This document shows, piece by piece, positions 8,925-27,704 of a DNA stretch of 28,197 nucleotides. This stretch comes from a virus. How positions within the stretch are numbered: the first letter of the stretch is position 1; every line of letters starts with the position of its first letter. The notes below the pieces were generated by a model, which was given only the letters and a program-made list of their open reading frames with translations, had not been told where the DNA came from and searched no databases. The stretch spans positions 1 to 28,197 of IMG/VR virus record IMGVR_UViG_3300030328_003329; one strand, written 5' to 3'. The position numbers were made by a program, and so were the translations under genes.

Positions 8925-11900
8925 ATGCCAGAAATAAAGCACAACTTTTCTCAAGGTAAAATGAATAAAGACCTTGACGAAAGACTGGTTCCTAATGGAC
9001 AGTATACACACGCAACTAATGTTCAGGTTTCAACATCTGAAGATAGTGATGTTGGTACAGTTCAAAGTTTATTAGGTAATAGTGCAATACCAACGGCTAG
9101 TGCGACAACAATGTCTACAGCTGGGGTTTGTATTGGCTCTGTTGCTGATGAACAAAACGATTGTGCTTATTGGCTTATTGCAAGTTCTAATGTATGGGAC
9201 AATAGTGCCCCATCTTCTATTACCACATACAAAGACGTTATATACAAAACAGAATATGACTCTTCAGATAATACACACACCACTACCCCTGTCTTTATTG
9301 ATTTTTATTCAGAAAAACATCCTTCAAGCGCTTTGTCTAGCTGGGTGGGTAGTTCCACATATACTTCTTTTAATACAACAACAACAAATCTTTCGACAGG
9401 TATGTACGCTATTTTTGTTACATCTGTCGCTGGTAGAAATAATGAAGTTAGAAAAATAACAAAAAGTAGTAATACAATTAGTTTTGATGCTATTGATTAT
9501 AATTCTTGGGATTACATAGACTTTTCTTGGTCAAAACCTGATATTAACAATCCTTACGATTATAATTCTAATCAAAAAAAATCTAGGGTATTGCGTTTTG
9601 ACAAAAGTAAATTAATAACAGGTATTAATATTATAGATGATTTATTATTTTGGACAGACGATAATTCAGAACCTAAAAGAATAAACGTAGCTAGATCAAT
9701 AGAGGGTACAGACGCTAGTAAATTAAATAAAAACACAAGAATTGTTTTAAGCAAAAGAGATATAGGAATAGATGATGATGTTTTTGTAAAAGAAGAAGAC
9801 ATTACTGTAATTAAAAAAAGTCCAAAAAAAGCACCTATTTTAGATATAAAAAGCGGTATAAGATCTGGTAATATAACTGTAAATAGTACTATTGATTTAA
9901 GTCAAAAACAAATAGGTAGTATTTTTGAATTTACTACAGATTTAAATTCTAATTACAAATCAAATGACATTTTAGTTTTTGCTAATGGTTTTACACCAAC
10001 TATAACAAATAACCATGCTAGAGTTAGGGTAATATCTATTAGCAATTTAACCGTCAAAGTTGTAATTTTAACTTTAAGTCCTAACGCCCCAACCTCTTCT
10101 GTTCTTTACAAAATTTGTTTAGAAGAAGATGCTAAAATAATTTTTAAAGAAAAGTTTGCAAGATTTGCAACAAGATGGAAATATGCTGACGGGGAATATT
10201 CAAACATATCTCCTTTTTCAGAACCAGCTTTTGGTACTGGAGATTTTAATTATAATCAAATTAAAGGATTTAACTCAGGAATGGTTAATACTTTAAAAGA
10301 ATTAATTATAGAAAAATTTATTCCAAAAGAAATACCTAAAGAGGTTGTTCAAATAGATATATTATATAAAGAGTCAGACTCTCCTGTTATTTATACTGTT
10401 GATAATATTTTTTATGATTCAACTTCGTGGAATACTACTGACGTAAACTTGGATTACCAAGGAACATATACAATTAGTTCTGAAAACATATATTCTGCCA
10501 TATCATCTAATCAAATACTAAGACCTTTTGATTCTGTTCCTAAAAAAGCATTAGCACAAAGTATTGTTGGTAATAGAGTTGTTTATGGAAACTATATTGA
10601 AAACTATGACATTAACAACGGAGAAGGTTCGGTTATAAAGCCAAAAATAAATGCTTTTATAAATTTTAGAACTCAACTTTCAAGTGAAATACTACAAAAC
10701 CCAGGATTATCCCAAGCAGACGGTCCTTCTAGTGCTCAAATACCTAATTGGAATCATGATTATGTAAGCGGAGCTAGAAATGGTTGGATAACCAATTGGA
10801 TTAGCACAAGTATAGGTGTAAAAGGTTTTAAAGAAAAAGATACTGGTGGTGTTGATAGTTTTATGAAAATTTGGCAAGGGGTTGAGTTAGAAGATGACGA
10901 AACTTATGTAGTTTCTATTCGATTAAATAATTATACGCAGGGTAATATTAGACTTCATTTAGTAGGTCCTACAAAGAGCGATAAAGTTGATATTAATCCT
11001 TTAACTGTAACAGGTGATATGATTGGTGTTCATGAGTTTGAATTAACTTTAAGTAAACTTAATACTACTGAAAATACTGAAAGTTTTTATACAGATTCCA
11101 AAAACTTTATGATTCAAGTAGTACCTATTACAACAACTGACGCTGATACATACGGCACTTTGCTTCCATTTAAAGGCCAAATAACCGGTTTTAGTCTTAA
11201 AAAATCAACTGAAGCTAAAAATAAATCTATAAAATCACAAAGAACATATCAACTTGGCGTGGTATATGCTGATGAGTTTGGAAGACAAACTCCAGTTTTA
11301 ACAAGTGAAAACTCTTCGATTGAAGTTCCAAAAATAGATTCTAGTAATATAAATGCTATAAATATTGAAATTGATAGTACTCCTCCTGAGTTTGCAAATT
11401 CTTTTAAATTTTTTGTAAAAGAAACTTCTTCGGAGTATTATAACTTAGCAGTAGATAGAATATATGAGACTATAGATGGTATGGCCTGGTTGTCTTTTCC
11501 TTCTAATGAAAGAAACAAAGTGGATGAAGAAACTTACTTAGTATTAAAAAAACAACTTAACGGTCAAGCTGTTATTAGCGAGTCTTCTACGTATAAAATA
11601 ATTTCTATAGAAAATGATACCCCTAGTTTTCTTAAGCAGTCTAGAAAAGAGTTAGGTACTGCTAACGGTTCGTGGTCTTCCTCGGGGTCTTTAAACGGCG
11701 TGTTTACAAATGTAAACTATAGACCATCTGAAGATCAACAGGTTTTAAAAATAGAAAAAGATTTATGGATTAACGAAGAAAATGGAGCAGAACTAGAAGG
11801 GTATAGCGATTTAATTTTACAATTTGAAAGTGGTAGTGTAAAATCAGGCTGGCTTAAAGCAGACGCTGTTGATTTATCTTCAGACAATAGGTACTACATA

Positions 11901-14900
11901 CTACACTTGCATTCTCCAATTTTAGAAACTGATTCTGGTTGGATTATGAGTGGTTCAAATTTTAGTTCTGGCGTGAGTGTAACTGTAGCTCATTATGATA
12001 GCGATAGTAGACCTGAGTTTGATGGAAAGTTTTTTGTTAAAGTTCAACTTGATGGTGACTTAAAACAATTTGTTCAACAGCAAGCGATATTAGATCAAGA
12101 CAGTTTTGGTATAGCCGCCCAGTCACGATCTTGGTATGTCTCAGATGATAATGCCTATAATGTCGCGCCTGGAGCTGGGACAGCTTCAAGATTCCAAAAA
12201 GATTCTGCTAGTAGTGGTAATTATGTACAAGGCAGCAGTGTTAAAGCCTATACTTTTGATCAGAATTTATTTGATATACACCCGTTTAAAGAACAAGTTA
12301 CTTTTACAGACACTACTTGCAATATAACAGATACATCTCAGACAATTCAACACACCGCCAACGCTAACATTCAGCCCTATTGGCATATTTCCGGGCCTGG
12401 CATTCCTCTTAATTCTTTTGTTTTAAGTATTACGGACGACAACAATTTTGTATTTACTCAATACGGCACAACTGACACTAGTAGTAGCGTCAGCGCTCCT
12501 GATCCTGTAGGTGCTGATGGGAGTTCAAGTGGCGCGAGTGTAGTTTTTACAAGATGGTTTGATGACAAGGGTGATAGTGGTTATAACGCTGGTAGAGGTG
12601 CCGCTGCTCTTCGCGGTACTTCAACTCCCACTTTATATATGTCACAGTCAGCCGTAAGAAACTGGGGTAGAATATTAAAGTTTTTAAAATATAGTAGTTG
12701 GACTTATCAAAATATACCTAACAACGACGAGGCCAGAAGAAACTTTTTTATAGACAAGGTGCGTTATGTTGGTATACAACCTTTGAACAACAATAAGCCA
12801 CATGACGGGCTTTACACAGATCCTGGTCATTTTGATCATCGCCAGGGACAGAGATTACAGCGGAACTCAGATCCAATTAGCACAACAAATGGCGAAGGTT
12901 TAGCAGGTACATCACTTTTACCACGGTATGGGAGAGGTATTTTTACAGCAACAGGAAATGAAAAAGACATAAAAGATCAGCCTGATCACTTCTTTACAGC
13001 AGGCAGGAAATACATGGAGCTTTCTTATGCTAAAATTTGGGCAGAATCTTCTTTAATGAATATACCTCAAGACGTAGCTGGTGAAGAAAGTTCTTACGCA
13101 ACAGCTTGGAATGTTGGTAAACCTACAAACACAAACCATGTTAACGAAACTGAATTTGTTTCTAAAATCAAAGTAGGTTCTAGATTTAGATTTTCTGGAG
13201 ATCCTAATGAAAAAGTGTATCAAATTACCAATGTAAAACAAGAAAGAAGATACAACCATACGGTTTATCCTGGTGGAAATGGTAATTATTTAATAACAAT
13301 AGGAAAATGGGGGGATGGTGGTACTGGCACATTAGCTGATGGTTGTCCAATTAGACCTGATGACAAGGCTACAAAGCGTACAAAATTTGCAATCGTTGCC
13401 GATGGTGATACTACTAACCGTTTCCGAGCTGGAAAATCGACTGTATATGCTGACGGGAGTCCTAATGATCCTTGGACGAGTAATAGAACTATAAACCGTG
13501 ATAAAACAATACAAGATGAAAGAGCTAGATTTGGCCTTGCTACAAACAGAAGGATAACTTGGATTATTGAGTATGAAGACGTAACAGTGACACAGTCTGG
13601 TAATGTTAGTCCAGATTACAACCCTGTTAACGAGACCACAGGTAAAGGCGTGACTGGTACTGGTACTGATAATCTTATGGATGAAGTAAATAGTCAATAT
13701 ATTGAATTTGTAGAACCTTCTTTTGACGCGGAAAATCAATTAATATCAGATGATCCTGCTGTTTTTGAAACTCAACCAAAAACTAGTGAAGGTTTAGATA
13801 TTTATTATGAGGCTAGTGATTTTATTGACATTAACGACCATAACAGTATACACGAACTACCTTGGTTTAATTGTTATAGCTTTGGTAACGGTGTTGAGTC
13901 AAATAGAATTAAAGATGATTTTAACCAAGTGTTTGTTGATAAAAATGCTATAGTATCAACTACATCGCAAGGTGAATACGAAGAAAACAGAAGAAAATAT
14001 GGTTTGATATATTCTGGTATTTATAATTCTAAAAACGGTGTTAACAACACAAATCAATTTATTGCTGCGGAAAAAATAACAAAAGACATAAATCCAGAAT
14101 ATGGTAGTATACAAAAAATATTTGCTAGAAATTCTGATTTATTAACTCTTTGTGAAGATAAAATATTAAGAATACAAGCTAACAAAGACGCGTTGTTTAA
14201 CGCCGATGGAAATGTTAACGTAACAGCCACGTCAAATGTTTTAGGACAAACAATACCTTTTGTAGGAGATTATGGTATATCACAAAACCCAGAGTCATTT
14301 GCAAGTGAAGCTTATAGATGTTATTTTACAGACAAACAAAGAGGCGCTGTGCTTAGATTGTCAATGGATGGTTTGACACCTATATCTGATTATGGAATGA
14401 GTGATTGGTTTAAAGATAATTTAAAACCGGCCACAGAAATTATGGGTACTTATGATGTTAATAAAAAAGAGTATAATGTAACTTTAAAACCAGGTGAAAG
14501 TAGCACAAACTATACGGTTTCTTATAGTGAAAAAGTTAAAGGTTGGTCTAGTTTTAAATCATTTATACCAGAGCAAGGAGTGAGCGTTTCAGGCAACTAT
14601 TATACTTTTGCAAGTCAAAGTGGTAGCGCTAAGGTTTGGTGGCATCACCAAGGTTTGCCTTTAACAACTGAAGACGGTATTGAAGCTAAAACTGCAAACA
14701 ATTTTTATGGTACTCAATACTACTCCGATATTACAACTGTATTTAACGAAGAGCCTAGTATGATAAAAACTTTTAAAACCTTAAATTACGAAGGCACACA
14801 GTCTAAAATACACCAAAATACAGGCGATACTGAAAATTATTATAATTTAGTAGAAGATGAAGGTTGGTATGCAGAGACTATAACAACAGACAAACAGACT

Positions 14901-15053
14901 GGTAGTATAAATGAGTTTATAGAAAAAGAAGGCAAATGGTTTAATTTTATAAAAGGCGATACAACTTATTATACCACTGCTACTGACAACAATTTAGATA
15001 CAAGTGAATTTACGGTGCAAGGATTAGGTAAAATAACAGCAGAAGATATATAA
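8925..15053 (+). CDS. Muzzle / tail-stabilisation-type protein, 2042 residues, with inserted domains
   Basis: This very large tail protein probably forms the distal tube or muzzle of a short tail. The N-terminus (KMNKDLDERLVPNGQYTHA, then NVQVSTSEDSDVGTVQSLLG) is a strong signature of this family in crAss-like and marine phages. Later family blocks are RTYQLGVVYADEFGRQTPV (about 773-791), PEFDGKFFVKVQLDGD (about 1030-1045) and EAYRCYFTDKQRGAVLRLS (about 1790-1808). Two stretches break this core. Residues about 583-765 look like a jelly-roll, carbohydrate-binding-type domain. Residues about 1065-1580 are encoded by DNA of clearly higher GC. The central parts are beta-rich, as expected of a propeller-like tail protein. 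No cleavage site or enzyme motif is seen. The overall call is fairly sure; the inserted-domain functions are not. Confidence 0.78.
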   Translation: MPEIKHNFSQGKMNKDLDERLVPNGQYTHATNVQVSTSEDSDVGTVQSLLGNSAIPTASATTMSTAGVCIGSVADEQNDCAYWLIASSNVWDNSAPSSITTYKDVIYKTEYDSSDNTHTTTPVFIDFYSEKHPSSALSSWVGSSTYTSFNTTTTNLSTGMYAIFVTSVAGRNNEVRKITKSSNTISFDAIDYNSWDYIDFSWSKPDINNPYDYNSNQKKSRVLRFDKSKLITGINIIDDLLFWTDDNSEPKRINVARSIEGTDASKLNKNTRIVLSKRDIGIDDDVFVKEEDITVIKKSPKKAPILDIKSGIRSGNITVNSTIDLSQKQIGSIFEFTTDLNSNYKSNDILVFANGFTPTITNNHARVRVISISNLTVKVVILTLSPNAPTSSVLYKICLEEDAKIIFKEKFARFATRWKYADGEYSNISPFSEPAFGTGDFNYNQIKGFNSGMVNTLKELIIEKFIPKEIPKEVVQIDILYKESDSPVIYTVDNIFYDSTSWNTTDVNLDYQGTYTISSENIYSAISSNQILRPFDSVPKKALAQSIVGNRVVYGNYIENYDINNGEGSVIKPKINAFINFRTQLSSEILQNPGLSQADGPSSAQIPNWNHDYVSGARNGWITNWISTSIGVKGFKEKDTGGVDSFMKIWQGVELEDDETYVVSIRLNNYTQGNIRLHLVGPTKSDKVDINPLTVTGDMIGVHEFELTLSKLNTTENTESFYTDSKNFMIQVVPITTTDADTYGTLLPFKGQITGFSLKKSTEAKNKSIKSQRTYQLGVVYADEFGRQTPVLTSENSSIEVPKIDSSNINAINIEIDSTPPEFANSFKFFVKETSSEYYNLAVDRIYETIDGMAWLSFPSNERNKVDEETYLVLKKQLNGQAVISESSTYKIISIENDTPSFLKQSRKELGTANGSWSSSGSLNGVFTNVNYRPSEDQQVLKIEKDLWINEENGAELEGYSDLILQFESGSVKSGWLKADAVDLSSDNRYYILHLHSPILETDSGWIMSGSNFSSGVSVTVAHYDSDSRPEFDGKFFVKVQLDGDLKQFVQQQAILDQDSFGIAAQSRSWYVSDDNAYNVAPGAGTASRFQKDSASSGNYVQGSSVKAYTFDQNLFDIHPFKEQVTFTDTTCNITDTSQTIQHTANANIQPYWHISGPGIPLNSFVLSITDDNNFVFTQYGTTDTSSSVSAPDPVGADGSSSGASVVFTRWFDDKGDSGYNAGRGAAALRGTSTPTLYMSQSAVRNWGRILKFLKYSSWTYQNIPNNDEARRNFFIDKVRYVGIQPLNNNKPHDGLYTDPGHFDHRQGQRLQRNSDPISTTNGEGLAGTSLLPRYGRGIFTATGNEKDIKDQPDHFFTAGRKYMELSYAKIWAESSLMNIPQDVAGEESSYATAWNVGKPTNTNHVNETEFVSKIKVGSRFRFSGDPNEKVYQITNVKQERRYNHTVYPGGNGNYLITIGKWGDGGTGTLADGCPIRPDDKATKRTKFAIVADGDTTNRFRAGKSTVYADGSPNDPWTSNRTINRDKTIQDERARFGLATNRRITWIIEYEDVTVTQSGNVSPDYNPVNETTGKGVTGTGTDNLMDEVNSQYIEFVEPSFDAENQLISDDPAVFETQPKTSEGLDIYYEASDFIDINDHNSIHELPWFNCYSFGNGVESNRIKDDFNQVFVDKNAIVSTTSQGEYEENRRKYGLIYSGIYNSKNGVNNTNQFIAAEKITKDINPEYGSIQKIFARNSDLLTLCEDKILRIQANKDALFNADGNVNVTATSNVLGQTIPFVGDYGISQNPESFASEAYRCYFTDKQRGAVLRLSMDGLTPISDYGMSDWFKDNLKPATEIMGTYDVNKKEYNVTLKPGESSTNYTVSYSEKVKGWSSFKSFIPEQGVSVSGNYYTFASQSGSAKVWWHHQGLPLTTEDGIEAKTANNFYGTQYYSDITTVFNEEPSMIKTFKTLNYEGTQSKIHQNTGDTENYYNLVEDEGWYAETITTDKQTGSINEFIEKEGKWFNFIKGDTTYYTTATDNNLDTSEFTVQGLGKITAEDI

Positions 15054-16690: not shown

Positions 16691-17035
16691 ATGGCAACAA
16701 TAACATTAGGCAATACAACAATAAGTGATTCTTTGAGTATAGGTGATATAATTTATCACGCTCCTATAACTACGGCTAATGGATTTGATCAATTAGGCAC
16801 AACTGTAAAAATAGGTAATGTCACCGCTATAAACAAAGATACTAGCGTTATAACCGTAACAACTAGTTTAAGTAGCGTAAATTTAGTTGGTAATTTTTTG
16901 TTTTTTTCTAAAAACAATGCTGTTGAAACTTCTGGGCTAAAAGGTTATTATGCAACTGTAAAAATGAAAAACACAAGTGTTCATGCTTCAGAGCTTTTTT
17001 CACTTAGTTCTGAAATATCAGAAAGTAGTAAATAA
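16691..17035 (+). CDS. Small conserved virion-associated protein of unknown function
   Basis: This 114-residue protein is mostly beta. It begins MATITLGNTTISDSLSIGD and alternates polar and hydrophobic residues (VKIGNVTAINKDTSVITV). It ends with FLFFSKNNAVETSGLKGYY and ELFSLSSEISESSK. I recognise this ending (YYATVKMKN, then AELFS-type, then SESSK) from small proteins repeatedly found beside tail genes of uncultured marine phages, but no function is known to me. Its gene follows the 544-residue appendage gene by one base, which suggests a partner, cap or chaperone for it. A 40-base gap follows. Confidence 0.62.
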   Translation: MATITLGNTTISDSLSIGDIIYHAPITTANGFDQLGTTVKIGNVTAINKDTSVITVTTSLSSVNLVGNFLFFSKNNAVETSGLKGYYATVKMKNTSVHASELFSLSSEISESSK

Positions 17036-17075: not shown

Positions 17076-17912
17076 ATGGCAATAGGTTTAATTAAAAAAC
17101 AAATAATACATAGTTCTGGTAAAAACAGTTCTCCTACACGTTTTTTTGCAGGTAGTGGAAATAGAAAAAGATTAGCAGATGCAAAGGCAGTGTTTGAAAC
17201 AGAAATGAACAAATATAGAAATACAACCTTTACAAACCCATTTTCTGAAAATGTTTACGCCAATATGAGTAATCAATTTGAAGATTTAACTGTTAATCAA
17301 AAACAAGCTAATCTTGAAGGGCAACTAAATCGACAAAGCGAAGCTAATGTGCTTGATGCAATAAGAAGTGGTGGTGACTTTAACGTTGGTAATATACAAG
17401 CCTTAACTAACCAAAGCCAAATAGCAAATCAAAGAATCTCGGCTAATATTGGCCAACAAGAAAGTGCAAATCAAATTGCCGCGGCTCAAGAAGCCTCAAG
17501 ACTTCAAGAGCTAGAGGCTAAAGGGGAGTTACAAGTTCAGACTGGAGAGCAACTTTTACAGCAACGAGAATTTGACAAACAATCAACACTGTTAGGTATG
17601 TCAATGGAGCAAGTTTCAAACGCTGAAGAAGCTATTGCGGCTAATAAAGCAATGTGGGGTAATATTGTAGGTGGTGTTATTGGTTTGGCAGCGTTGAGTG
17701 ATAAAAGATTAAAAAAGAATATTAATTTAATTGGTCAATCACCTAGTGGTTTAAATATATACAGTTTTGAATATAAAAACTCTATGTACGGAAAAGGATT
17801 GTTCCAAGGCGTTATGTCTGACGAGGTTCCATCAACAGCGGTAGTAAAAGGTGTAGATGGTTATGATATGGTAGATTACAATATGTTAGACGTACAATTT
17901 AAACAAATATAA
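17076..17912 (+). CDS. Coiled-coil virion protein with short C-terminal S74-type self-cleaving chaperone domain
   Basis: Residues about 40-190 are a Gln/Ala/Asn-rich helical region (NQRISANIGQQESANQIAAA), like internal virion proteins of podoviruses. Residues 193-207 are a hydrophobic, Gly-rich stretch (MWGNIVGGVIGLAAL). Residues 208-278 begin with SDKRLKKNI and contain YSFEYKN, GLFQGVMSDEVP and DYNML. This matches the intramolecular chaperone of endosialidase (peptidase S74) family, in which the chain is cut between the Ser and Asp of the SD-RLK motif; here that is S208/D209. The domain is short (71 residues) compared with those of endosialidase tailspikes. Cleavage would leave the hydrophobic stretch as a new C-terminus. 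The S74 call is confident; an internal or membrane-entering role for the N-terminal part is inferred. Confidence 0.8.
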   Translation: MAIGLIKKQIIHSSGKNSSPTRFFAGSGNRKRLADAKAVFETEMNKYRNTTFTNPFSENVYANMSNQFEDLTVNQKQANLEGQLNRQSEANVLDAIRSGGDFNVGNIQALTNQSQIANQRISANIGQQESANQIAAAQEASRLQELEAKGELQVQTGEQLLQQREFDKQSTLLGMSMEQVSNAEEAIAANKAMWGNIVGGVIGLAALSDKRLKKNINLIGQSPSGLNIYSFEYKNSMYGKGLFQGVMSDEVPSTAVVKGVDGYDMVDYNMLDVQFKQI

Positions 17913-17914
17913 AT

Positions 17915-19270
17915 ATGGGAGCAGATGGAGAATTAATAAGAGCGGCAGGTCGAATGGGGCCAAAACCATGGGATTATAGTGGAATAATGAATGCTATAGC
18001 TGCTTTTGGAAAGTTAGCTATAGGAAAAAAGAAAATTGCTGATGAACTAACTACTTATGGTGAAAAAGAATTTGAAATAAAAGAAATGCCAGATGAAATG
18101 CTTACCGGTCCTTTTGGTGATGACAATTCTTCTTTTTTTTCCAACATAAAAAACCAATGGCTTAAACACGTAGAAACTATAGAAAAACCACTTAATCTTC
18201 CTTCTGGTAAAAAATACAAAAATGCTGTTAAGTCAATTAACATGCTAAAAGGTGTTCTTGAAAAAAATAAGGCAGATTTGTTAATTTGGGCTGAGGTAAG
18301 AAAAAATGTTAACGAAAATTGGGCAAACGCATCTAATGGTATAGGTAGACAAGTATTTCATAGAGTTGCAGACTTGCAAATAAATAATACTCATGGCGAT
18401 ATGAACGCTGCTAGTAGATTTACTGCTGATGGGCTTAAAATATATTCTAGTGATGTAGATTTAATGCAAAATAGAGAATTTAGTCCTTCGGAATTAATGG
18501 AAGGATTCTTTGTAAACCAAATGAGTATTAATGATAACTCAGGAAAACTTACTGACATAATTGACAAGTTTGGTGCAAAAAGAAAAAATGCGGGTAAAAA
18601 TTGGGATGAAAATCTAGCTAAAACTGAAATTGTTGGCTTTATAAACACAATGAAAGAAAGTAAATATGGTGGGAACGGACTTAAAAGTCTTGCTTTTGAT
18701 TATTATAACGCGGCAGGTGGCGGAACATTTGTGCAAGCAAATAAATCTTTATTTTCTAACCCTGGAAAAAATAATGAAGAGGCAAATCTTTCATATGTAG
18801 AACAGTATAAAAAAGCAAATCCAGATGCTACTCCTGGAGAAATAGAGCTTGCTTATACACATCAAGCCGTAGACGTTTGGGATGGTGGAGATTCTTCTGA
18901 ATTTGAAGTAAAACTAACTGATTGGTTATTAGGTATATCGAAAGCAAGTTATGACGGTGCAAAAAGCAAAAAACAACTTTCAACAGAGAAAAAAGATAAA
19001 CAAGGGTTAGGTCCAAAAACATTTTATGTAACACAAGAGCAGATTGGTGGTAAAAATGGTATTATTGATAGAATAAAAGCCGGTCAAGAGTTTCCTCTTG
19101 GCGTGCTAAACCATAAAAAAATTGATGGTAAATGGGCGGTTAATCAAAAATTTGGTGGTACTAAAAAAGCAGGTGGTGGTTATTACTTTATAAAAGACGG
19201 TACTGATGCAGATCTTCACAGCTATTTAAGAATTATAAACGATCCAAGGTTTGACTTTTTACTAAACTAA
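17915..19270 (+). CDS. Predicted internal virion protein of unknown function
   Basis: This 451-residue protein has no signal peptide and no clear membrane segment apart from a short apolar patch (IMNAIAAFGKLAIGKKK) near residue 25. The N-terminal half is charged and helical (AVKSINMLKGVLEKNKADLL). Residues about 290-330 contain a Tyr/Pro/Glu stretch (ANPDATPGEIELAYTHQAVD). The end is Gly/Lys-rich with a compact beta segment (KFGGTKKAGGGYYFIKDGT, then YLRIINDPRFDFLLN). I do not recognise the family and see no lysozyme or nuclease motif. It begins two bases after the S74 gene and ends 13 bases before the giant gene, so all three are likely made together. By position it may be capsid cargo or an ejection protein; this is inference only. 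Confidence 0.6.
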   Translation: MGADGELIRAAGRMGPKPWDYSGIMNAIAAFGKLAIGKKKIADELTTYGEKEFEIKEMPDEMLTGPFGDDNSSFFSNIKNQWLKHVETIEKPLNLPSGKKYKNAVKSINMLKGVLEKNKADLLIWAEVRKNVNENWANASNGIGRQVFHRVADLQINNTHGDMNAASRFTADGLKIYSSDVDLMQNREFSPSELMEGFFVNQMSINDNSGKLTDIIDKFGAKRKNAGKNWDENLAKTEIVGFINTMKESKYGGNGLKSLAFDYYNAAGGGTFVQANKSLFSNPGKNNEEANLSYVEQYKKANPDATPGEIELAYTHQAVDVWDGGDSSEFEVKLTDWLLGISKASYDGAKSKKQLSTEKKDKQGLGPKTFYVTQEQIGGKNGIIDRIKAGQEFPLGVLNHKKIDGKWAVNQKFGGTKKAGGGYYFIKDGTDADLHSYLRIINDPRFDFLLN

Positions 19271-19283
19271 AATTAAATATTAA

Positions 19284-22200
19284 ATGGGACCATTTAGCTT
19301 ATACAATACTTTACTAAACGAAGGACAGTTTGAAGGAGGCTTTGACAAGTTTAATATGAAAATGTCAAAAAATTTTTACAAAGATCCTGAAACAGGTGAA
19401 ATGAAAAGTTATAGAAAAGAAGTGTTTGACTATATTTCTGACCCTAGCTCTTTAGGTATTGTAGATTATAACACTGGTACTTTGACTCCTGCTCCAAAAA
19501 CTTTTGAAGAGTTTGAAGACACTTATTACACCACACAAAATGATTCTCATTTTACAGTAGACGATGGCCCAGTGTTTAGTCTTAAATCAATACCGCTTAA
19601 TAAAAAAGGTGGATATAAAGTAAACTCAACAGCGTATAGTTTTGTTCTTGACGAATCTGGATTTATAACACCTACTAAAGACTTAGAAGTTTCAGAAACA
19701 GAATATGATTTGTTTAGCATGTTTACTCAACAAGTAGAGTCTAGCGATTTTTTTGACGTAGGCCCAGCCAAAGTAACAGTAAATAAAAAGTTGTTTGGTA
19801 ATGTTGAAGACGAAGAGTTTTCTGATGAGCTTTCTTTAATGTTTCCTGAGTTTAAATTTGAACCTCTTAACCTAAGAACAAATATAGAGTATGACAAAAC
19901 TTGGCAAGGTAGTAAAGGTTCCAAACTACCTTACCAGCCAGATGACAAAGCTATTTTTACTAAAAAACAAGCTGTAAAAGTTACTTCACCTGACGGTGAC
20001 TATGTTGTTATTGAAGTTAATATTGAGGATAATAGAATGCCTCTTCTTAGAGATCCTAATAAAAGCTCAGGCTTTAACATTTCACCTATGGATGGTGAAA
20101 AAATCCCTTCTAAAGAGTCTATAAATCAAAGTATAGAAAAAGCTTACTTACAATCATACACAGACTTAACTTCTTTTCTCGAAAACAAACTTCAAGATGA
20201 ATCTATTTTAGAAGGCAATCTTAAAAAATTAACGCTTAATAAGCAAAAAAGTAGAATTGCTTACGAAAAATATAGAAAATTTTTTACACCTATAATAGCC
20301 GCTGTTCAAGAAGAATATAATAAGCCTGATTTATTTGATCCTATAGAAAAAGGAGTTTATGGTGTAGATAAAAGTATTCCAAACCAGCCTGTTAAAAAAA
20401 TTTTATACGAACAGCCTTTTGAAAAAGAACTAAAAGAAAACTATGATTTTTTAATAAAGAAAAATAAAGGTGGCCCAGTTTCTCAAAAACAACTTCACGA
20501 TTTTACAAGAAAAAAATTAATTAGCGACGAGATTTATAAAAGAAAACAGGCTAAAATAGAAGAAATTCAAGAAAATATTGAAGACGGCGAAGTACCTATT
20601 GGTTTTGAAGAGTATCAAGATGATCCAAAAATGCTAACCGCGGTATTACAACTTGGTACTAAAGAATACGTTAGAGAATATGTTACAAAAAAGAATTTTT
20701 TAGCAATTGAAAATAATTTTCAAAATGACAGTAAAATAGCTAAAAGATACCAATCAACAAAAAATAAAATAGAAGATCCTGCTTTTGAGTTTGAAGTAAA
20801 AGAAGGCGAAACATATTATTTGATAAACGACAAAGAAATACCTGAGGGTGTTTTTAATCAATACAAAAAAGACTTAAACGCTATAATAAAAAGTTATGAG
20901 TTTTCAACAAAACTTACAAACGATATATTAGATAATTATGAAAACGTACAAGACACTGATTTAGTTTTAAACTTAATTGGTAGAGATTACAATGATTGGA
21001 ACAAGTTTAAAGCAACCACACAGATAGCATACGCTAATATATTTGGTGGTAATTTATATGCTTTAACTGAAAGCGAGGAAGGTATTGCTAGATACGTTGC
21101 GCAAAGAGACGAAATAAATAGAAGACTTAATAAATACGCTCCAAATGTAGAGTTTGACGATGCTTTTGGTAAAGGTTGGGATCAGTTTGGTAAGTTTGTA
21201 ACTCAAGAAATATCAAATCAACTTGCTGTATTTACAGCACTTGCAATACCAAAAGTTGGTTTAGGTATTTTAGGTGCTAGTAGTTTTAGTGAAAATTACG
21301 GTAGAATGACTTTAGAAGAACTAGACTCTAAAGGAGCAATAGACCATAGTACTTGGAAAAAAACATACATCTCTGCTGGATACGCTATACCTGAAGTTAC
21401 AATAGAATATTTCACTACATTACCACTTCTTAGGGGTGCTAGAAACTCACTAAACAATATGTATGGACCGCAAGCAAGAGATTATGTTAGAAGAGGTATA
21501 GACGATGTAGTTACGGAAGATTTGCCAGTATTTGTAAAAGGTGCTGGGCTTGGTACAGGTGGTGAAGGATTAACTATGGTAATACAAAATCTTGTTTTAG
21601 GAAAACCTTGGGATGAGAATGTAGATCACGCTTTATTTTCAGGGTTTATGTTTGAAACAACTTTAGCGTCTGTACCGTTAATTAAAGGTGTGGCCGTAGC
21701 TAGTCTTTCTGATTTTGACAAAACACAAGATATTAGACAAGATATTGAAACAAGAAACAATTTACTTATAGAAAATGCTAATTTAAACGCAAAATACAAC
21801 GACCCTGCATATCAAAAAAATAAAAAGCTAAAAGATTTATTACAAAAAAGAGAAGCAGACAATCAAATTGCTATTGATGAATTAAGCAAAAAAATTGAAG
21901 ACGCTATAGCTGAAGATACAAAAAGCGTTCAAAGCATGGATAAAGACGCTTATCAAGGTTATACAGTGGTGACTAAAGAGCAAGAAGAAATTAGAGTAAA
22001 AGCAAAAGCTATTATTGAGAATAAGAGCATACCAGAGTCTCAAAAGAAAAAAATGCTAGAAAAGCTTAAGATAGATTTTGAATTTAAACAATTTGCTAGA
22101 AACGAATTTAAAAAAGAAAAGCATAGTAAATTCCATAGTTGGGCTGGTCAAAACAAAAATAAAAAGTCTTTTGAAGAGTTAAAAAAATTAGCTGAGCAAG

Positions 22201-25200
22201 AGCTTAGACAAGGTAGTTTTAGAGTTGGCTCGGTTATAAAAGAACCTACTGAATCTGAAATATACTCTCATGCAAAAAGCATTTGGAATGCAAAGGAAAT
22301 AAATAAAAATTTAAACAAGGCTAAAAAAGATGGTTTATTAGAAGATAATTTAGTTGTGTTTCAAAGCGTTCAAGAGTATGAAGAAAAATCTAAAGAAAAA
22401 AACAAAGACGGTAAGCTAAAATATCCTGAGTTAGAAAAACAATTAACAAAAATTAAAAACGGTGCGCACGGTTTTGACAACGTTACGACTGAAAAATCTT
22501 ATATAGTTATAGAAAATATGGCTAAAGATGATCGTCTTGAAGTAAAAACCCACGAGCTTGGCCATAGACTTTTAGGTAATGTTATAAGTAGAAATAGCGA
22601 TGCTTTTGCCCCATTAAGCATTGCTGTTTTAGGTTGGGCAGAGCAAAACGATACAGGTTTGTACAATAGACTTAGAAGAAGGTCTATTGGTGGTGCAGAC
22701 GAAGTAATATCTGTATTTTTAGAAGAAGCAGCGGCTGGTAATGTTAATTTAGAGCAAGATAACATTGGTGGTGTGTTTGGCTTTATGGCTAGTAATGTTT
22801 TAAAAGATAATCATGGTATTGATTTAAATTTAGGAGGCCAAGTAGATGCTATAACGATGCTTGTTAGTCTTGGTAAAAAGCTTAAAGCTGGTACTTTAAC
22901 TATTAAAGACGTTAGAGATTTAGAGTCTAGAGAAGATATTAAAGCTCTCAAAAAATATGGTGAAACTATAGACAAAATTGACACTGCAGATAAAATGTCT
23001 GAAAGATCAGGCGCTGTTGAATCAGTTAATAAAATAGAGCAAGAATTAAAATCTAGATTAAAAAATCAAAACAAAGAATATACTAAGGCGGAGTTTCAAA
23101 AAAGTCCAGAGTTTAATAATTTGTTTGAATCAATAAGTTTAAGTGGTGGCGCTGTAAATAACTATATTAGAAGTCTTGGTATGAGTGCTGCTAAAACAAA
23201 GGCTACTATAGAATCTGCTAGTAATAGATTAATGAACTATAATCCTCAAGCTGAAAGAAAAACTAAAACAGGTGAAAGCATAACTATTGGTGAGGCTATA
23301 ATGGCTAACATAGGTTTTGCTAAAAAAGACGCCGCTAAAAAACTATTTAAAAGAGGTCAAGAGCAAAAAAGAACTAGAGCTATTGAGGAAAAAGACGCCA
23401 ATATAGAAGATACACAAACCACAACTCAAGAGTCAGAAGTTAAAGACGTTAAACTTAGAAAACTAAAAGATTTTAATGTAGAGCTAGACAATGGCTTAGC
23501 AGATGCTTTAACTGTAACTGCTGTTAATAATTTATTAAATGATTTTAATAGTGGTAAAATAACTTTTGAACAAGCTCAAAAACAAATGGATATACTTGTT
23601 CTTAAAGATATAAGAGCTAAATTATCTGAAACAATACCTAAAATTGCAAAAAATAAAAAGACTGGAAAAGTTGAACCAACAGCTGAATATGAAGCTTTTA
23701 TTAGAGATGAATATGACGAAATTGTTGCTAGCTTAGGTATTAAAACTATTAGAACGTCTTACAAAAAGTGGTTTAAACAAGAAAAAACAGGCAAAAAAGA
23801 TTATAAAACTATTAACCCTGAAACTGGCAAAGTTAGTAATTATGTAAAAGATACACAAATAAATACAACTAACAAACGTGAATATATAAGATGGTTTTTA
23901 GAAGGTAAGCCAAATGATTTAAGAGAAAGAAGAACTGCCTTAATAAGACGTATTGCAAAAAGAAAAGCAAGTTTAGCTGTTGATAGCTATATTGACGAAA
24001 ACTCAGATAATTTAGAAGCTGTTGTAAAGTCTAAAATGAGAACAATGTCTGATAGCGCTCAAAATGCTACTGATGAGCAAGTAAGTTTTGACGCTGTTAA
24101 ATTTTCTGAAAAAGTTTCTGCAAACTACAATAGGATTAATAAAAAAATGGAAAGTTTTGGTCAGTACGAAGCGCCAGACGGTAGCATAATGACTTTTGCT
24201 ATGAAGAAAAACGGCAATTGGGATCATGGTAGAGCTTTTGAACAAGCTTACAACGAGGCTTTGCAAGAAATTGTAAAACCTATAAAAGGTTTTAATATTG
24301 ATTCTTTAGTTGCAAAAGAAAAAGGTGGGTATGCTGATATAGTTTTTACTTTTCCTGATGGAAAATACGAAAACCACGAAATAAAACAAACACCTAGCGC
24401 TAGAATGGGTAGTGTTAAGTTTACAAAACTTAACCTTGAAACAGGTGAGTATGTATTGGCAAATCCAGCTCATAAAAACATACCAGGTTTAGATAAAATT
24501 GTTAAAGAGGCTATAAAAGTTGCAAGGCAAAAAATAAAACAAATAAATCAATATAACAACGAGTATAACGAAAAATATGGTTATAAAAAAGGAGATCCAG
24601 AGTTTGCAGATCAAGTAACTGGTAACGAAAGATTTTGGATCCCTGCAGAAGTTGATGATAGAATGTCTGGTAGACTTATTGATCCTAATACAGGTAAAAA
24701 AGGTTTAGGCAAAACCCTTGTTAAAAAAGTTGTACAAGGTAGAGATGTTATAGCAAATGGCTACGAAAATAAAAAAATAATTATAGATAAAAAGAAAATA
24801 GATGCTCCAGTTAGATCTATAACATATGGAGGCTACGGTTCTTTTAGGCTAAGTGAACTGTCTAAGTTTACAGGTTTACCATTACTAGACGTAGACGTTG
24901 AAGTTAGGGCTAGTCTACGTAACTCAAGATCTGTAGATAATTATAGAGGAGGGAAAGTTAAATTTAGAGATAAGTTTATAGGTATAGAGTTTTATCTTTC
25001 TGGTAAAATAAAAAACGAGCCTAACTCTGGTATTACAACAACAGAAAGTTTTATGCAAGCTACAGGCGCGCCAGCTTTTTCTCAAAACATAGGTAACGCT
25101 GAAAATTTAAATAAAGCGGTAAATAATTCTAGAACAAACAAATATTCTGAGTCTTCACGAGGTATAACAATATTAGATTTTGACGACACGTTAGCCACAA

Positions 25201-27704
25201 CAGAATCTTTGGTTAAATTTACTAGACCAGACGGTACAACTGGTACTTTGAACGCCGAAGAATATGCTAGAGATTATCAAGGCATGTTAGAACAAGGATA
25301 TAAATTTGATTTTTCAGAATTTAATAAAGTTGTAAAAGGTAAAATAGCGCCATTATTTCAAAAGGCACTAAAACTACAAGGTAAGTTTGGTCCTGAGAAT
25401 ATGTTTGTGTTAACAGCTAGACCACCACAAGCTGCTATTGCTATATTTGATTTCTTAAAAGCTAACGGCTTAAATATACCTTTAAAAAATATAACTGGCC
25501 TTGCTAATTCTACTTCAGAAGCTAAAGCACTTTGGATAGCTGATAAAGTTGGTGAAGGCTTTAATGATTTTTATTTCGCTGATGACGCGTTGCAAAATGT
25601 GCAAGCAGTAAAAAATATGTTAGAACAATTTGATGTAAAATCAAAAGTACAACAAGCAAGAGTTAAGTTTAGCGAAAACGTGGATAATCAGTTTAATGAC
25701 ATATTAGAAGATATTACTGGTATAGAATCTAAAAAAAGATTTTCAGCTGTTAAAGCTAGAAAACGTGGAAAAAGTAAAGGTAAATTTAGATTTTTTATAC
25801 CACCTTCACACGAAGACTTTGTAGGGTTATTATACAACTTTATAGGTAAAGGTAAAAAAGGAAATGCACATAGAGATTTCTTTGAGCAAACTTTAATTAG
25901 ACCATTGAATAGAGCATATAGAGAGTTAAATACAGCCAGACAATCTATAGCTAATGATTATAGATCGTTAAATAAGCAGTTTGAAAATGTTAAAAAGAAA
26001 TTAAACAAAAAAACTCCAGATGGTGATTTTACATATCAAGACGCTATTAGAGTGTATTTATGGGATAAACATGGTTACAATATACCTGGGTTAAGCAAAA
26101 AAGACCAACAGGGTTTAGTTGATTTAATTACACAAGATTCAGAGTTACAATCTTATGCTGAAGCATTAAATATTATATCTAAAAGAGATAATTATGTAAG
26201 CCCTTCAGAAGGGTGGGAGGTTACAGACATAAGAATGGATCTAGACGATGCCACTGGTAGAATTGGTCGAGAAGAGTTTTTTACTAAATTTACTGAGAAT
26301 GCTGATATAATATTTTCACAAAAAAACTTAAATAAAATAGAGGCTATTTACGGTCCTGACATGGTTAGCGCTATTAAGGACATGCTGTATAGGATTAAAA
26401 CTGGTAGAAATAGACCTAGTGGACAAAATAAAATTGTAAATGGGTTTATGAATTGGTTTAATAGTTCTGTTGCGGCTACCATGTTTATCAATGTAAGATC
26501 CGTAGTGCTACAGCAAATGTCTTTAGTAAACTTTATAAATTATAGCGACAATAACATGATAGCGGCGGCAAAAGCCTTTGCTAATCAAAAACAATATTGG
26601 GCTGATTGGGCGTTTTTATTTAACTCTGATTTTATGAAACAAAGACGTGGTGGAATTAAAACGGATATTAATGGGGCTGAATTAGCAGAATCACTAAGGG
26701 GCGCTAAAAACAGTCCAGTAGTGTTATTAGGTAAACTACTAGAAATGGGGTTCAAACCAACACAAATTGGGGATAATGTTGCAATTGCAACTGGTGGAGC
26801 TACTTATTATAGAAATAGAATAAATACATACTTAAAGCAAGGGTTAAGCAAAAAAGAAGCAGAGGCAAAAGCGTTTATTGATTTTCAGGTATTAGCTGAG
26901 GCCACACAGCAATCGGCAAGGCCCGATCTAGTTTCGCAACAACAAGCGTCATCACTTGGAAAAATAATATTGGCTTTCCAAAATGTAACTTCTCAATTTA
27001 ACAGATTAGGTAAAAAAGCGTTTTTAGATCTTAAAAACAGAAGAATAAGTCCTGAATATAGAAACGCAAGTAATCCACAATTACAAAGCGATATATCTAA
27101 TTTGTCAAGAATTGCTTATTATTTTGCAATACAAAATTTAGTATTTGCCACTTTACAATCAGCATTGTTTATGGCTATGTTTGATGATGATGAAGATGAT
27201 AAAAAGTTACTAAAGAAAAAAGAAAGAGCTATTAATCAAAGTATTGATTCTGTTTTAAGAGGTACTGGTGTTTGGGGAGCAGTTATTGCTACTTTAAAAA
27301 ATATGGCTATTAAGCGTTTTGAAAACGAAGGCAAGGAATGGAGAGCTAATGAGTATAGCGTGCTAGCAGAAGCGTTACAAGTTTCTCCACCTCTTGGCGC
27401 AAGAGCTAGAAAATTAGTTAAAGCTGAAAGAGATCTTATTTGGGATAAAGATGCTATTAGTGAAATGGAGATTTTAGATATTGAAAATCCATTTTGGCCA
27501 GCTGTAACAAATTATATTGAGGGAACAACCAATGCACCTCTTAATAGAATTTACAATTTAACACTTCAAGTTAAAGACGGGTTAGACAACCAGTTTAAAG
27601 CTCTCCAAAGAGTTTTAAGAGTTGGTGGTTGGGGACGATGGGATCTTGGAATTGAAAATGAAAGTGACAAAATAAAAAGCTTTAAAAATAATAGAGCCCT
27701 TTAA
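19284..27704 (+). CDS. Giant polyvalent virion protein: zincin-like, PD-(D/E)XK-like and HAD-like domains with conserved C-terminal region
   Basis: This 2806-residue protein fills 30% of the window. Residues 1-640 are charged and mostly helical. Residues about 640-810 contain several apolar stretches (VFTALAIPKVGLGILGASSF). At 1090-1094, HELGH is the zinc-binding motif of zincin metallopeptidases, with E1147/E1148 as a candidate third ligand. At 1653-1701, E1653, D1685, E1699 and K1701 (HEIKQ) fit a PD-(D/E)XK nuclease core. At 1963-2105, LDFDDTLA (D1965, D1967), LTARP (T2044) and FADDALQN (D2100, D2101) are HAD phosphatase motifs. Residues about 2380-2650 match a conserved region of giant phage proteins (IGDNVAIATGG, then SARPDLVSQQQASSLG) and include a likely membrane segment at 2610-2633. 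Such multi-enzyme chains are known as polyvalent proteins thought to be injected with phage DNA. The motifs are seen directly; activity and injection are inferred. Confidence 0.85.
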   Translation: MGPFSLYNTLLNEGQFEGGFDKFNMKMSKNFYKDPETGEMKSYRKEVFDYISDPSSLGIVDYNTGTLTPAPKTFEEFEDTYYTTQNDSHFTVDDGPVFSLKSIPLNKKGGYKVNSTAYSFVLDESGFITPTKDLEVSETEYDLFSMFTQQVESSDFFDVGPAKVTVNKKLFGNVEDEEFSDELSLMFPEFKFEPLNLRTNIEYDKTWQGSKGSKLPYQPDDKAIFTKKQAVKVTSPDGDYVVIEVNIEDNRMPLLRDPNKSSGFNISPMDGEKIPSKESINQSIEKAYLQSYTDLTSFLENKLQDESILEGNLKKLTLNKQKSRIAYEKYRKFFTPIIAAVQEEYNKPDLFDPIEKGVYGVDKSIPNQPVKKILYEQPFEKELKENYDFLIKKNKGGPVSQKQLHDFTRKKLISDEIYKRKQAKIEEIQENIEDGEVPIGFEEYQDDPKMLTAVLQLGTKEYVREYVTKKNFLAIENNFQNDSKIAKRYQSTKNKIEDPAFEFEVKEGETYYLINDKEIPEGVFNQYKKDLNAIIKSYEFSTKLTNDILDNYENVQDTDLVLNLIGRDYNDWNKFKATTQIAYANIFGGNLYALTESEEGIARYVAQRDEINRRLNKYAPNVEFDDAFGKGWDQFGKFVTQEISNQLAVFTALAIPKVGLGILGASSFSENYGRMTLEELDSKGAIDHSTWKKTYISAGYAIPEVTIEYFTTLPLLRGARNSLNNMYGPQARDYVRRGIDDVVTEDLPVFVKGAGLGTGGEGLTMVIQNLVLGKPWDENVDHALFSGFMFETTLASVPLIKGVAVASLSDFDKTQDIRQDIETRNNLLIENANLNAKYNDPAYQKNKKLKDLLQKREADNQIAIDELSKKIEDAIAEDTKSVQSMDKDAYQGYTVVTKEQEEIRVKAKAIIENKSIPESQKKKMLEKLKIDFEFKQFARNEFKKEKHSKFHSWAGQNKNKKSFEELKKLAEQELRQGSFRVGSVIKEPTESEIYSHAKSIWNAKEINKNLNKAKKDGLLEDNLVVFQSVQEYEEKSKEKNKDGKLKYPELEKQLTKIKNGAHGFDNVTTEKSYIVIENMAKDDRLEVKTHELGHRLLGNVISRNSDAFAPLSIAVLGWAEQNDTGLYNRLRRRSIGGADEVISVFLEEAAAGNVNLEQDNIGGVFGFMASNVLKDNHGIDLNLGGQVDAITMLVSLGKKLKAGTLTIKDVRDLESREDIKALKKYGETIDKIDTADKMSERSGAVESVNKIEQELKSRLKNQNKEYTKAEFQKSPEFNNLFESISLSGGAVNNYIRSLGMSAAKTKATIESASNRLMNYNPQAERKTKTGESITIGEAIMANIGFAKKDAAKKLFKRGQEQKRTRAIEEKDANIEDTQTTTQESEVKDVKLRKLKDFNVELDNGLADALTVTAVNNLLNDFNSGKITFEQAQKQMDILVLKDIRAKLSETIPKIAKNKKTGKVEPTAEYEAFIRDEYDEIVASLGIKTIRTSYKKWFKQEKTGKKDYKTINPETGKVSNYVKDTQINTTNKREYIRWFLEGKPNDLRERRTALIRRIAKRKASLAVDSYIDENSDNLEAVVKSKMRTMSDSAQNATDEQVSFDAVKFSEKVSANYNRINKKMESFGQYEAPDGSIMTFAMKKNGNWDHGRAFEQAYNEALQEIVKPIKGFNIDSLVAKEKGGYADIVFTFPDGKYENHEIKQTPSARMGSVKFTKLNLETGEYVLANPAHKNIPGLDKIVKEAIKVARQKIKQINQYNNEYNEKYGYKKGDPEFADQVTGNERFWIPAEVDDRMSGRLIDPNTGKKGLGKTLVKKVVQGRDVIANGYENKKIIIDKKKIDAPVRSITYGGYGSFRLSELSKFTGLPLLDVDVEVRASLRNSRSVDNYRGGKVKFRDKFIGIEFYLSGKIKNEPNSGITTTESFMQATGAPAFSQNIGNAENLNKAVNNSRTNKYSESSRGITILDFDDTLATTESLVKFTRPDGTTGTLNAEEYARDYQGMLEQGYKFDFSEFNKVVKGKIAPLFQKALKLQGKFGPENMFVLTARPPQAAIAIFDFLKANGLNIPLKNITGLANSTSEAKALWIADKVGEGFNDFYFADDALQNVQAVKNMLEQFDVKSKVQQARVKFSENVDNQFNDILEDITGIESKKRFSAVKARKRGKSKGKFRFFIPPSHEDFVGLLYNFIGKGKKGNAHRDFFEQTLIRPLNRAYRELNTARQSIANDYRSLNKQFENVKKKLNKKTPDGDFTYQDAIRVYLWDKHGYNIPGLSKKDQQGLVDLITQDSELQSYAEALNIISKRDNYVSPSEGWEVTDIRMDLDDATGRIGREEFFTKFTENADIIFSQKNLNKIEAIYGPDMVSAIKDMLYRIKTGRNRPSGQNKIVNGFMNWFNSSVAATMFINVRSVVLQQMSLVNFINYSDNNMIAAAKAFANQKQYWADWAFLFNSDFMKQRRGGIKTDINGAELAESLRGAKNSPVVLLGKLLEMGFKPTQIGDNVAIATGGATYYRNRINTYLKQGLSKKEAEAKAFIDFQVLAEATQQSARPDLVSQQQASSLGKIILAFQNVTSQFNRLGKKAFLDLKNRRISPEYRNASNPQLQSDISNLSRIAYYFAIQNLVFATLQSALFMAMFDDDEDDKKLLKKKERAINQSIDSVLRGTGVWGAVIATLKNMAIKRFENEGKEWRANEYSVLAEALQVSPPLGARARKLVKAERDLIWDKDAISEMEILDIENPFWPAVTNYIEGTTNAPLNRIYNLTLQVKDGLDNQFKALQRVLRVGGWGRWDLGIENESDKIKSFKNNRAL

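What the first reader, a model, noticed from the sequence alone, without database searches (positions are those of the whole stretch)
17300..17912. S74-type self-cleavage predicted to uncover a hydrophobic C-terminal helix
The predicted cut between S208 and D209 (SDKRLKKNI) directly follows MWGNIVGGVIGLAAL (193-207). In tailspikes, S74 domains help trimer folding and then leave. Here cleavage would turn a buried apolar segment into a free end of a coiled-coil protein, which might arm it for membrane insertion during genome entry. This use of an S74 domain would be unusual.
Basis: partly seen in the sequence, partly recalled or inferred. Interest (0 to 1): 0.62.

Follow-up and report, generated by a model that had tools for sequence, protein, structure and literature searches.

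The report
Self-cutting domain on phage ejection protein
This phage gene encodes a helical protein that is probably carried in the virus head and injected with the DNA, ending in a greasy tail plus a small, probably self-cutting domain; close relatives keep the greasy tail and lack the domain, so the domain looks like a swappable, removable cap and not the part that arms the tail.

Summary
ORF 17076-17912 (278 aa) has its most apolar stretch at 193-207, directly before a 71-aa S74-type domain (208-278). By homology the cut falls one residue earlier than stated, at L207|S208, giving about 22.5 + 8.0 kDa. The "helix" is uncertain: residues 195-205 are modelled below pLDDT 50.

The gene looks like the first ejection protein of a Bacteroidota-type podovirus with a crAss-like muzzle domain. 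Two corrections matter. (1) S74 on such proteins is not unusual: 53 of 56 sampled carriers match the window's own PHROG (6121) and 34 of 56 match 'DNA ejection protein'. These are a short S74 form that stops just after V-x-Y, without the coiled-coil helix that trimerises known S74 domains. The Ser/Lys dyad is kept in 52 of 52 examined, and the preceding 20 residues are usually the protein's most apolar. (2) Uncovering the apolar segment does not need S74: 11 of 11 closest relatives (53-59% identity) lack S74 and carry the same segment 3-31 residues from their natural C-terminus, while near-identical S74 domains sit on much more distant or unrelated proteins. S74 is a swappable, probably self-removing cap. 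Cleavage itself is untested.

The parts
17076..17912 (+). whole gene: 278-aa probable first ejection / internal virion protein with C-terminal short S74 domain
   Evidence: PHROG 6121 E 1.5e-13
17274..17612 (+). predicted long alpha-helices, residues 67-97 and 104-179
   Evidence: AlphaFold2 model
17652..17696 (+). apolar Gly-rich segment, residues 193-207 (MWGNIVGGVIGLAAL); conserved in relatives without S74
   Evidence: pLDDT below 50 at residues 195-205
17697..17909 (+). short S74 (intramolecular chaperone auto-processing) domain, residues 208-278, without the C-terminal trimerisation helix
   Evidence: pLDDT 93-98
17697..17699 (+). Ser208, predicted nucleophile; predicted scissile bond on its N-side (after base 17696)
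   Evidence: homology to MyRF and T5 pb1; invariant
17712..17714 (+). Lys213, predicted second dyad residue (Ser +5)
17808..17810 (+). Gly245, aligned with the strictly conserved ICA glycine of MYRF
17915..19270 (+). 451-aa protein directly downstream; its relatives follow the S74-less counterparts too (gp15-like by position only)
19284..27704 (+). 2806-aa giant protein (gp16-like / cargo by position only); no Pfam match
8925..15053 (+). 2042-aa tail protein ending in a crassvirus muzzle C-terminal domain
   Evidence: PF25729 42.4 bits, cut-off 27, residues 1924-2011

Best explanation
The gene encodes the first of three ejection (cargo) proteins: a small alpha-helical protein that ends in a conserved apolar, Gly-rich segment and is followed by a 451-aa and a 2806-aa protein, an order like T7 gp14-gp15-gp16 or P22 gp7-gp20-gp16. 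In this phage an extra 71-residue short S74 domain has been joined behind the apolar segment. Most likely mechanism: the S74 domain folds on the new chain, keeps the apolar end soluble and/or helps the subunits pair during synthesis and assembly, then cuts itself off at L207|S208 through Ser208/Lys213. What is left is the same kind of C-terminus that S74-less relatives make without any cut, and it can act at the membrane once ejected. Shown here: the homology of the domain, the invariant dyad, the recurrent architecture, the module's presence or absence among relatives. Inferred: virion location, cleavage, its timing, the capping role, membrane action.
For: Domain: profile hits to solved S74 chains; AF2 pLDDT 93-98; BFVD structure matches named 'intramolecular chaperone auto-processing' / 'endosialidase chaperone'. 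Catalysis: Ser0 and Lys+5 in 52 of 52 short S74 found with a pattern holding neither residue, while Arg+3 is 41 of 52 and Leu+4 31 of 52. Ejection: 53 of 56 short-S74 proteins match phrog_6121, 34 phrog_4287 'DNA ejection protein', 7 phrog_598 'DNA ejection'; the N-terminal part (11-165) of the Pseudoalteromonas H6/1 protein matches phrog_598 outside its S74; downstream genes include 'released from the phage upon host infection' families (5 and 2 of 57), transglycosylase (2 of 57) and internal virion protein with endolysin domain (1 of 57). Module: 11 of 11 nearest relatives lack S74 but have the apolar segment 3-31 residues from the end; S74 identity 62-76% with N-terminal identity 20-37% in five carriers. 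Context: muzzle domain; in crassvirus, cargo gp45/gp46 next to muzzle gp44 are expected to form the channel and gp45 has a predicted TM helix likened to T7 gp14 (PMC10172136 passages); ejected T7 gp14 is two antiparallel helices in an outer-membrane channel (PMC11784390 passages).
Against: No mass spectrometry or cleavage data for this protein or any short-S74 relative were seen. The domain lacks the C-terminal coiled coil that drives MyRF trimerisation, and MyRF cleavage needs ICA trimers, so an active short form needs another way to oligomerise. Neither the N-terminal family nor the downstream protein shows sequence similarity to solved ejection proteins. Foldseek and VIA did not return solved S74 chains for the model. 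The phrog_6121 and phrog_4287 profiles themselves contain S74, so many of those matches lean on the S74 part. Some short S74 domains sit on tail-type proteins (L100, L041).
Confidence: 0.52

Rival explanations
1. One reading: the specific job of S74 cleavage is to uncover, and so arm, a C-terminal membrane-insertion helix, timed to genome entry.
For: The apolar segment directly abuts the predicted cut here and in most short-S74 proteins (62 of 89 and 42 of 52 at or above the 95th percentile of their own protein; full S74 2 of 15 and 7 of 46). Crassvirus C1 and T7 gp14 are linked to membrane insertion.
Against: 11 of 11 close relatives make the same near-terminal segment with no S74. L130 has a polar linker of about 37 residues between segment and S74. 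S74 cleavage in known cases follows folding and trimerisation, i.e. assembly, not entry.
Confidence: 0.15
2. The short S74 domain is a folded but non-cleaving tail: without the trimerisation helix it no longer cuts and serves as a packing or portal-binding domain.
For: Truncated after V-x-Y (median 5 residues in short forms against 26 in full forms); MyRF cleavage requires the ICA trimer.
Against: Ser and Lys both kept in 52 of 52 while neighbouring Arg and Leu vary, and invariant in 95 aligned domains (a set drawn partly with a pattern that required them); not expected if catalysis were lost.
Confidence: 0.2
3. The protein is not ejected but an external tail or fibre component, and S74 acts as the usual fibre chaperone.
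For: Short S74 domains also occur on tail-type proteins, e.g. L100 (65% identical S74, N-terminal part unrelated); PHROG tail-fibre families are hit through the S74 part.
Against: The N-terminal part is modelled as long alpha-helices; the next two genes are a 451-aa and a 2806-aa protein; relatives' families are labelled DNA ejection.
Confidence: 0.1

Closest known systems
Peptidase S74 / intramolecular chaperone auto-processing domain (endoNF, T5 pb1, GA-1 gp12, MYRF)
   Same: Ser/Lys dyad at the same spacing (S911/K916 endoNF, S587/K592 MyRF as read in PMC8326128); same domain start; conserved glycine.
   Different: Ends just after V-x-Y with no alpha4 coiled coil; sits on an alpha-helical, probably ejected protein instead of a beta-helical trimer; upstream residues apolar.
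PHROG 6121 (virion structural protein) and PHROG 4287 (DNA ejection protein), e.g. Pseudoalteromonas phage H6/1 gp17 'putative ejection protein'
   Same: Same layout: variable N-terminal part, apolar segment, short S74 at the C-terminus, followed by further ejection genes.
   Different: N-terminal part of the window protein belongs to its own family, whose nearest members lack S74.
T7 gp14 / P22 gp7 / crassvirus gp45 (first ejection or cargo proteins)
   Same: Place in gene order, alpha-helical make-up, an apolar segment thought to meet the membrane.
   Different: No detectable sequence similarity to solved ejection proteins; S74 is not mentioned in the ejection-protein review PMC8954989 (term search of its text). 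P22 gp7 is trimmed at its N-terminus by a host protease, not by itself.

Membership tests
Peptidase S74 / ICA domain | Ser nucleophile with Lys five residues on | tested here: met
   S208 and K213; 52 of 52 short S74 in a sample whose search pattern held neither residue
Peptidase S74 / ICA domain | sequence similarity to solved S74 domains | tested here: met
   profile of window plus relatives hits 6f45 E 1.3e-5 and MyRF 7dc3 E 1.1e-4; single-sequence phmmer found none
Peptidase S74 / ICA domain | score above Pfam PF13884 cut-off (a curation threshold, not a biological feature) | tested here: not met
   15.5 and 19.4 bits against 22; of 9 other carriers scanned, 7 pass and the two nearest to the window's domain, L046 and L100, fall just below
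Peptidase S74 / ICA domain | structure match to solved S74 chains | tested here: inconclusive
   not among the Foldseek or VIA rows shown; BFVD models named ICA or endosialidase chaperone match from E 4e-6
Canonical tailspike-type S74 (trimeric chaperone) | C-terminal alpha4 coiled-coil helix driving trimerisation | tested here: not met
   protein ends 10 residues after V266-D-Y268; no long helix modelled there; short forms median 5 residues, full forms 26
Canonical tailspike-type S74 (trimeric chaperone) | fibrous or beta-helical trimeric host protein | tested here: not met
   residues 67-179 modelled mainly as long alpha-helices; oligomer not modelled
Peptidase S74 / ICA domain | autocleavage | not testable with these tools
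   needs expression or virion peptides
T7 gp14 / P22 gp7-type first ejection protein | small helical protein directly before the two larger ejection proteins | tested here: met
   278 aa, then 451 and 2806 aa; helical model; roles of the two larger proteins are by position only
T7 gp14 / P22 gp7-type first ejection protein | sequence homology to solved ejection proteins | tested here: inconclusive
   no match at E up to 10 other than an unrelated chain; such proteins diverge fast (PMC8954989 passages)
T7 gp14 / P22 gp7-type first ejection protein | carried in the virion and ejected | not testable with these tools
   positional counterpart phi40:1 gp099 is annotated as found by MS/MS in virions; homology to that group is weak (hhalign probability 23%, E 9e-4)
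Crassvirus cargo protein C1 (gp45) | sequence homology to gp45 | not tested
   only a muzzle C-terminal domain three genes upstream was shown

The most novel reading that the evidence does not exclude
A widespread class of short S74 domains, missing the trimerisation helix of tested S74 domains, works as a self-removing cap on membrane-active ejection proteins of many podoviruses: it keeps an apolar C-terminal segment soluble during assembly and cuts itself off directly behind it, using oligomer contacts supplied by the host protein itself. It moves between phage genes as an optional module.
Probability: 0.33. Interest if true: 0.7.

Novelty: new variant of a known kind. Interest (0 to 1): 0.48.

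Why it matters
S74 self-cleavage is known from fibres, tailspikes and the myelin factor MYRF, with a trimer in each case. A frequent short form on ejection proteins, with the dyad kept and the trimer helix missing, makes a clear question testable: do podovirus ejection proteins mature by cutting themselves, and what brings the subunits together? It would also give a handle on how apolar channel-forming proteins stay soluble before packaging. The optional nature of the domain (present or absent among relatives) is a ready-made natural comparison.

Tried and rejected
Rejected: chance resemblance to S74 (profile hits and invariant columns); apolar segment as an S74 requirement (S74-less relatives keep it; S74 on L100 has a polar upstream stretch); S74 as a lost separate gene in relatives (no S74 motif in six frames of L010-L016). 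My first reading that S74 was unique to the window among its family was wrong: S74-bearing relatives L134 and L139 (and the more distant L130 and L046) turned up only with the S74 pattern, because the family patterns had missed them. First counts used only 80 of 120 loci of each sample because I read only the listed ids; one search repeats them on all of sample 1 and on all 103 sample-2 loci not already in sample 1, and only those numbers are cited as counts. The PHROG scans of carriers were made on the first-80 set: 56 of 63 short-S74 proteins (the 7 left out are cut at the 5' end), 57 of 59 downstream and 54 of 54 upstream genes.

Led nowhere: a scan with the 451-aa neighbour alone found nothing, and its alignment gave the same 11 contigs; single-sequence PDB search; PDB fold searches returned only unrelated weak rows; a tree of the N-terminal parts was poorly supported (2 of 14 inner branches starred, long branches), so gain or loss of S74 is not resolved. 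P0002 was the wrong gene of MW202828; the right one is P0006. Papers: none joining S74 or the intramolecular chaperone to ejection proteins was found by searches of the held library (hits read as listings; PMC4992974 by passages, where the phrase was a reference title about the coat protein); most subscription papers are not in that library.

Full report
What is there. The window is a 28,197-base virus record. Its MCP is most like those of Bacteroidota phages: 85 phage records match, 68 Flavobacterium, 15 Cellulophaga, 1 Maribacter, 1 unnamed Caudoviricetes. The 2042-aa tail protein ends in a crassvirus muzzle C-terminal domain. The finding lies in ORF 17076-17912, 278 aa. Residues 193-207 are the most apolar 15-residue window of the protein and directly precede SDKRLKKNI.

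S74 homology. Pfam scores the domain just below its cut-off. A profile with relatives reaches solved S74 domains. In 95 aligned short S74 domains S208, D209, K213, G220, G245 and Y268 are invariant (the set was drawn partly with a pattern that required S, D, R, L, K, N and I). G245 aligns with the glycine that stands 48 residues after the Ser in MYRF, the spacing of the strictly conserved G626 (my count on the printed alignment). AF2 models the domain at pLDDT 93-98, and BFVD matches carry intramolecular-chaperone names. PDB fold searches did not return S74 chains, so that test is inconclusive.

Cut site. From named sections and passages of PMC8326128 and PMC4690869: MyRF is cut between P586 and S587, T5 pb1 between T1263 and S1264, with dyads S587/K592 and S1264/K1269. 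The bond here is therefore L207|S208, not S208|D209. [quoted passage not shown]

A short S74 form. The MyRF paper names the C-terminal alpha4 triple coiled coil as the main driver of trimerisation and says cleavage needs the trimer. The window domain stops 10 residues after V-D-Y. To see whether this is common I took two samples from IMG/VR. Sample 1 used a pattern on the S74 start; of 120 loci 117 gave 119 readable cases: 90 short C-terminal, 15 full, 6 internal, 8 cut. Sample 2 used a C-terminal motif that holds neither catalytic residue; 103 loci not in sample 1 gave 52 short, 49 full, 2 cut (all). Residues after the last V-x-Y: median 5 (3-17, n=140) in short forms, 26 (8-69, n=59) in full ones. 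In sample 2, Ser0, Asp+1 and Lys+5 are present in 52 of 52 short forms, Arg+3 in 41, Leu+4 in 31; the start was located with a loose S-[DNE]-x-x-x-K search, and no short form failed it.

The apolar segment before the cut. The 20 residues before the Ser reach the 95th hydropathy percentile of their own protein in 62 of 89 and 42 of 52 short forms, against 2 of 15 and 7 of 46 full forms (Fisher p 5e-5 and 7e-11). Sequences within each sample are related to each other, so these p-values overstate independence.

What the carriers are. Of 56 short-S74 proteins from the first 80 loci of sample 1, 53 match phrog_6121 (the window's own family), 34 phrog_4287 'DNA ejection protein', 7 phrog_598 'DNA ejection'. 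Both larger profiles include S74, so part of this is the domain itself; the H6/1 protein matches phrog_598 outside its S74. Of 57 downstream genes, 5 and 2 hit the two 'released from the phage upon host infection' families, and a few hit transglycosylase, endolysin or internal virion families; most have no named match. In annotated phages the carrier precedes ejection, injection or internal virion proteins in H6/1, AH02, phiM5 and PVA1; in PVA1 the carrier stretch itself has no gene in the RefSeq copy.

The decisive comparison. Two searches with the window protein or its family found 11 distinct contigs with N-terminal identity 53-59%. None has S74 on this gene. In all 11 the most apolar 15-residue window is at the same place and lies 3-31 residues from the natural end. 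Weaker positional counterparts in Elemovirus, Panino, phi40:1 and MW202828 also lack it (similarity only hhalign probability 23%, E 9e-4). S74-bearing relatives exist too: L134, L139 and the more distant L130 and L046, with S74 identity 62-76% but N-terminal identity 23-37%; L100 has a 65% identical S74 on a protein whose N-terminal part does not look related (20%). The N-terminal tree is too weak to say whether S74 was gained once or lost often. Either way S74 and the apolar segment are separable: the segment does not need S74, and S74 does not need the segment. In L130 a polar stretch of about 37 residues lies between them.

Mechanism. T7 gp14 forms an extended channel in the outer membrane after ejection, six copies of a two-helix hairpin (PMC11784390 passages); crassvirus gp45 has a predicted transmembrane helix and is expected to exit first (PMC10172136 passages); P22 gp7 is present in about 12 copies (PMC4992974 passages). 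The window protein has a similar place and helical make-up, without sequence similarity to solved ejection proteins. I think S74 is a removable cap or assembly aid: it leaves the same C-terminus that relatives encode directly. Whether the short form can cut without alpha4 is open; the kept dyad says it probably does.

Verdict. Real feature, mostly correct anatomy, interpretation partly right. It is a new variant of a known kind: a frequent, short S74 on ejection proteins, which I found described only as family or record labels (phrog_6121, phrog_4287, 'putative ejection protein' with pfam13884 in H6/1) and in no paper of the held library by the searches named under Tried and rejected.

Noticed in passing
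window 8925-15053 (residues 1924-2011 of the protein): A crassvirus muzzle C-terminal domain (PF25729, 42.4 bits, cut-off 27) in a Flavobacterium/Cellulophaga-type podovirus; the same protein has matches in L100, L046 and L130, which also carry S74 genes.
   Followed up: partly
genes directly upstream of short-S74 genes, e.g. L008:5319-5723, L005:4679-5173, L038:3833-4291: An N-acetyltransferase gene often sits directly before the short-S74 ejection gene: PHROG acyl-CoA N-acyltransferase is hit by 13 and acetyltransferase by 4 of 54 upstream genes; a role in modifying virion proteins is conceivable.
   Followed up: no
L006:4894-7824 (Cellulophaga phage phi40:1 gp085): A relative with an S74-less counterpart of the window gene carries a full S74 with a helical end on a tail-fibre-like protein annotated as part of the virion by MS/MS, so both uses occur in one phage group.
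   Followed up: partly
L051, L071, L088, L094, L114, L172, L005: Short S74 domains in the middle of very long proteins (about 790-1450 aa) and before a long second half; cleavage there would split one reading frame into two virion proteins.
   Followed up: no
window 16691-17035: The 114-aa protein before the target matches the C-terminal part of phrog_18548 and phrog_38031, whose other parts match the end of the 2042-aa tail protein, suggesting that these genes are fused or split in relatives.
   Followed up: no
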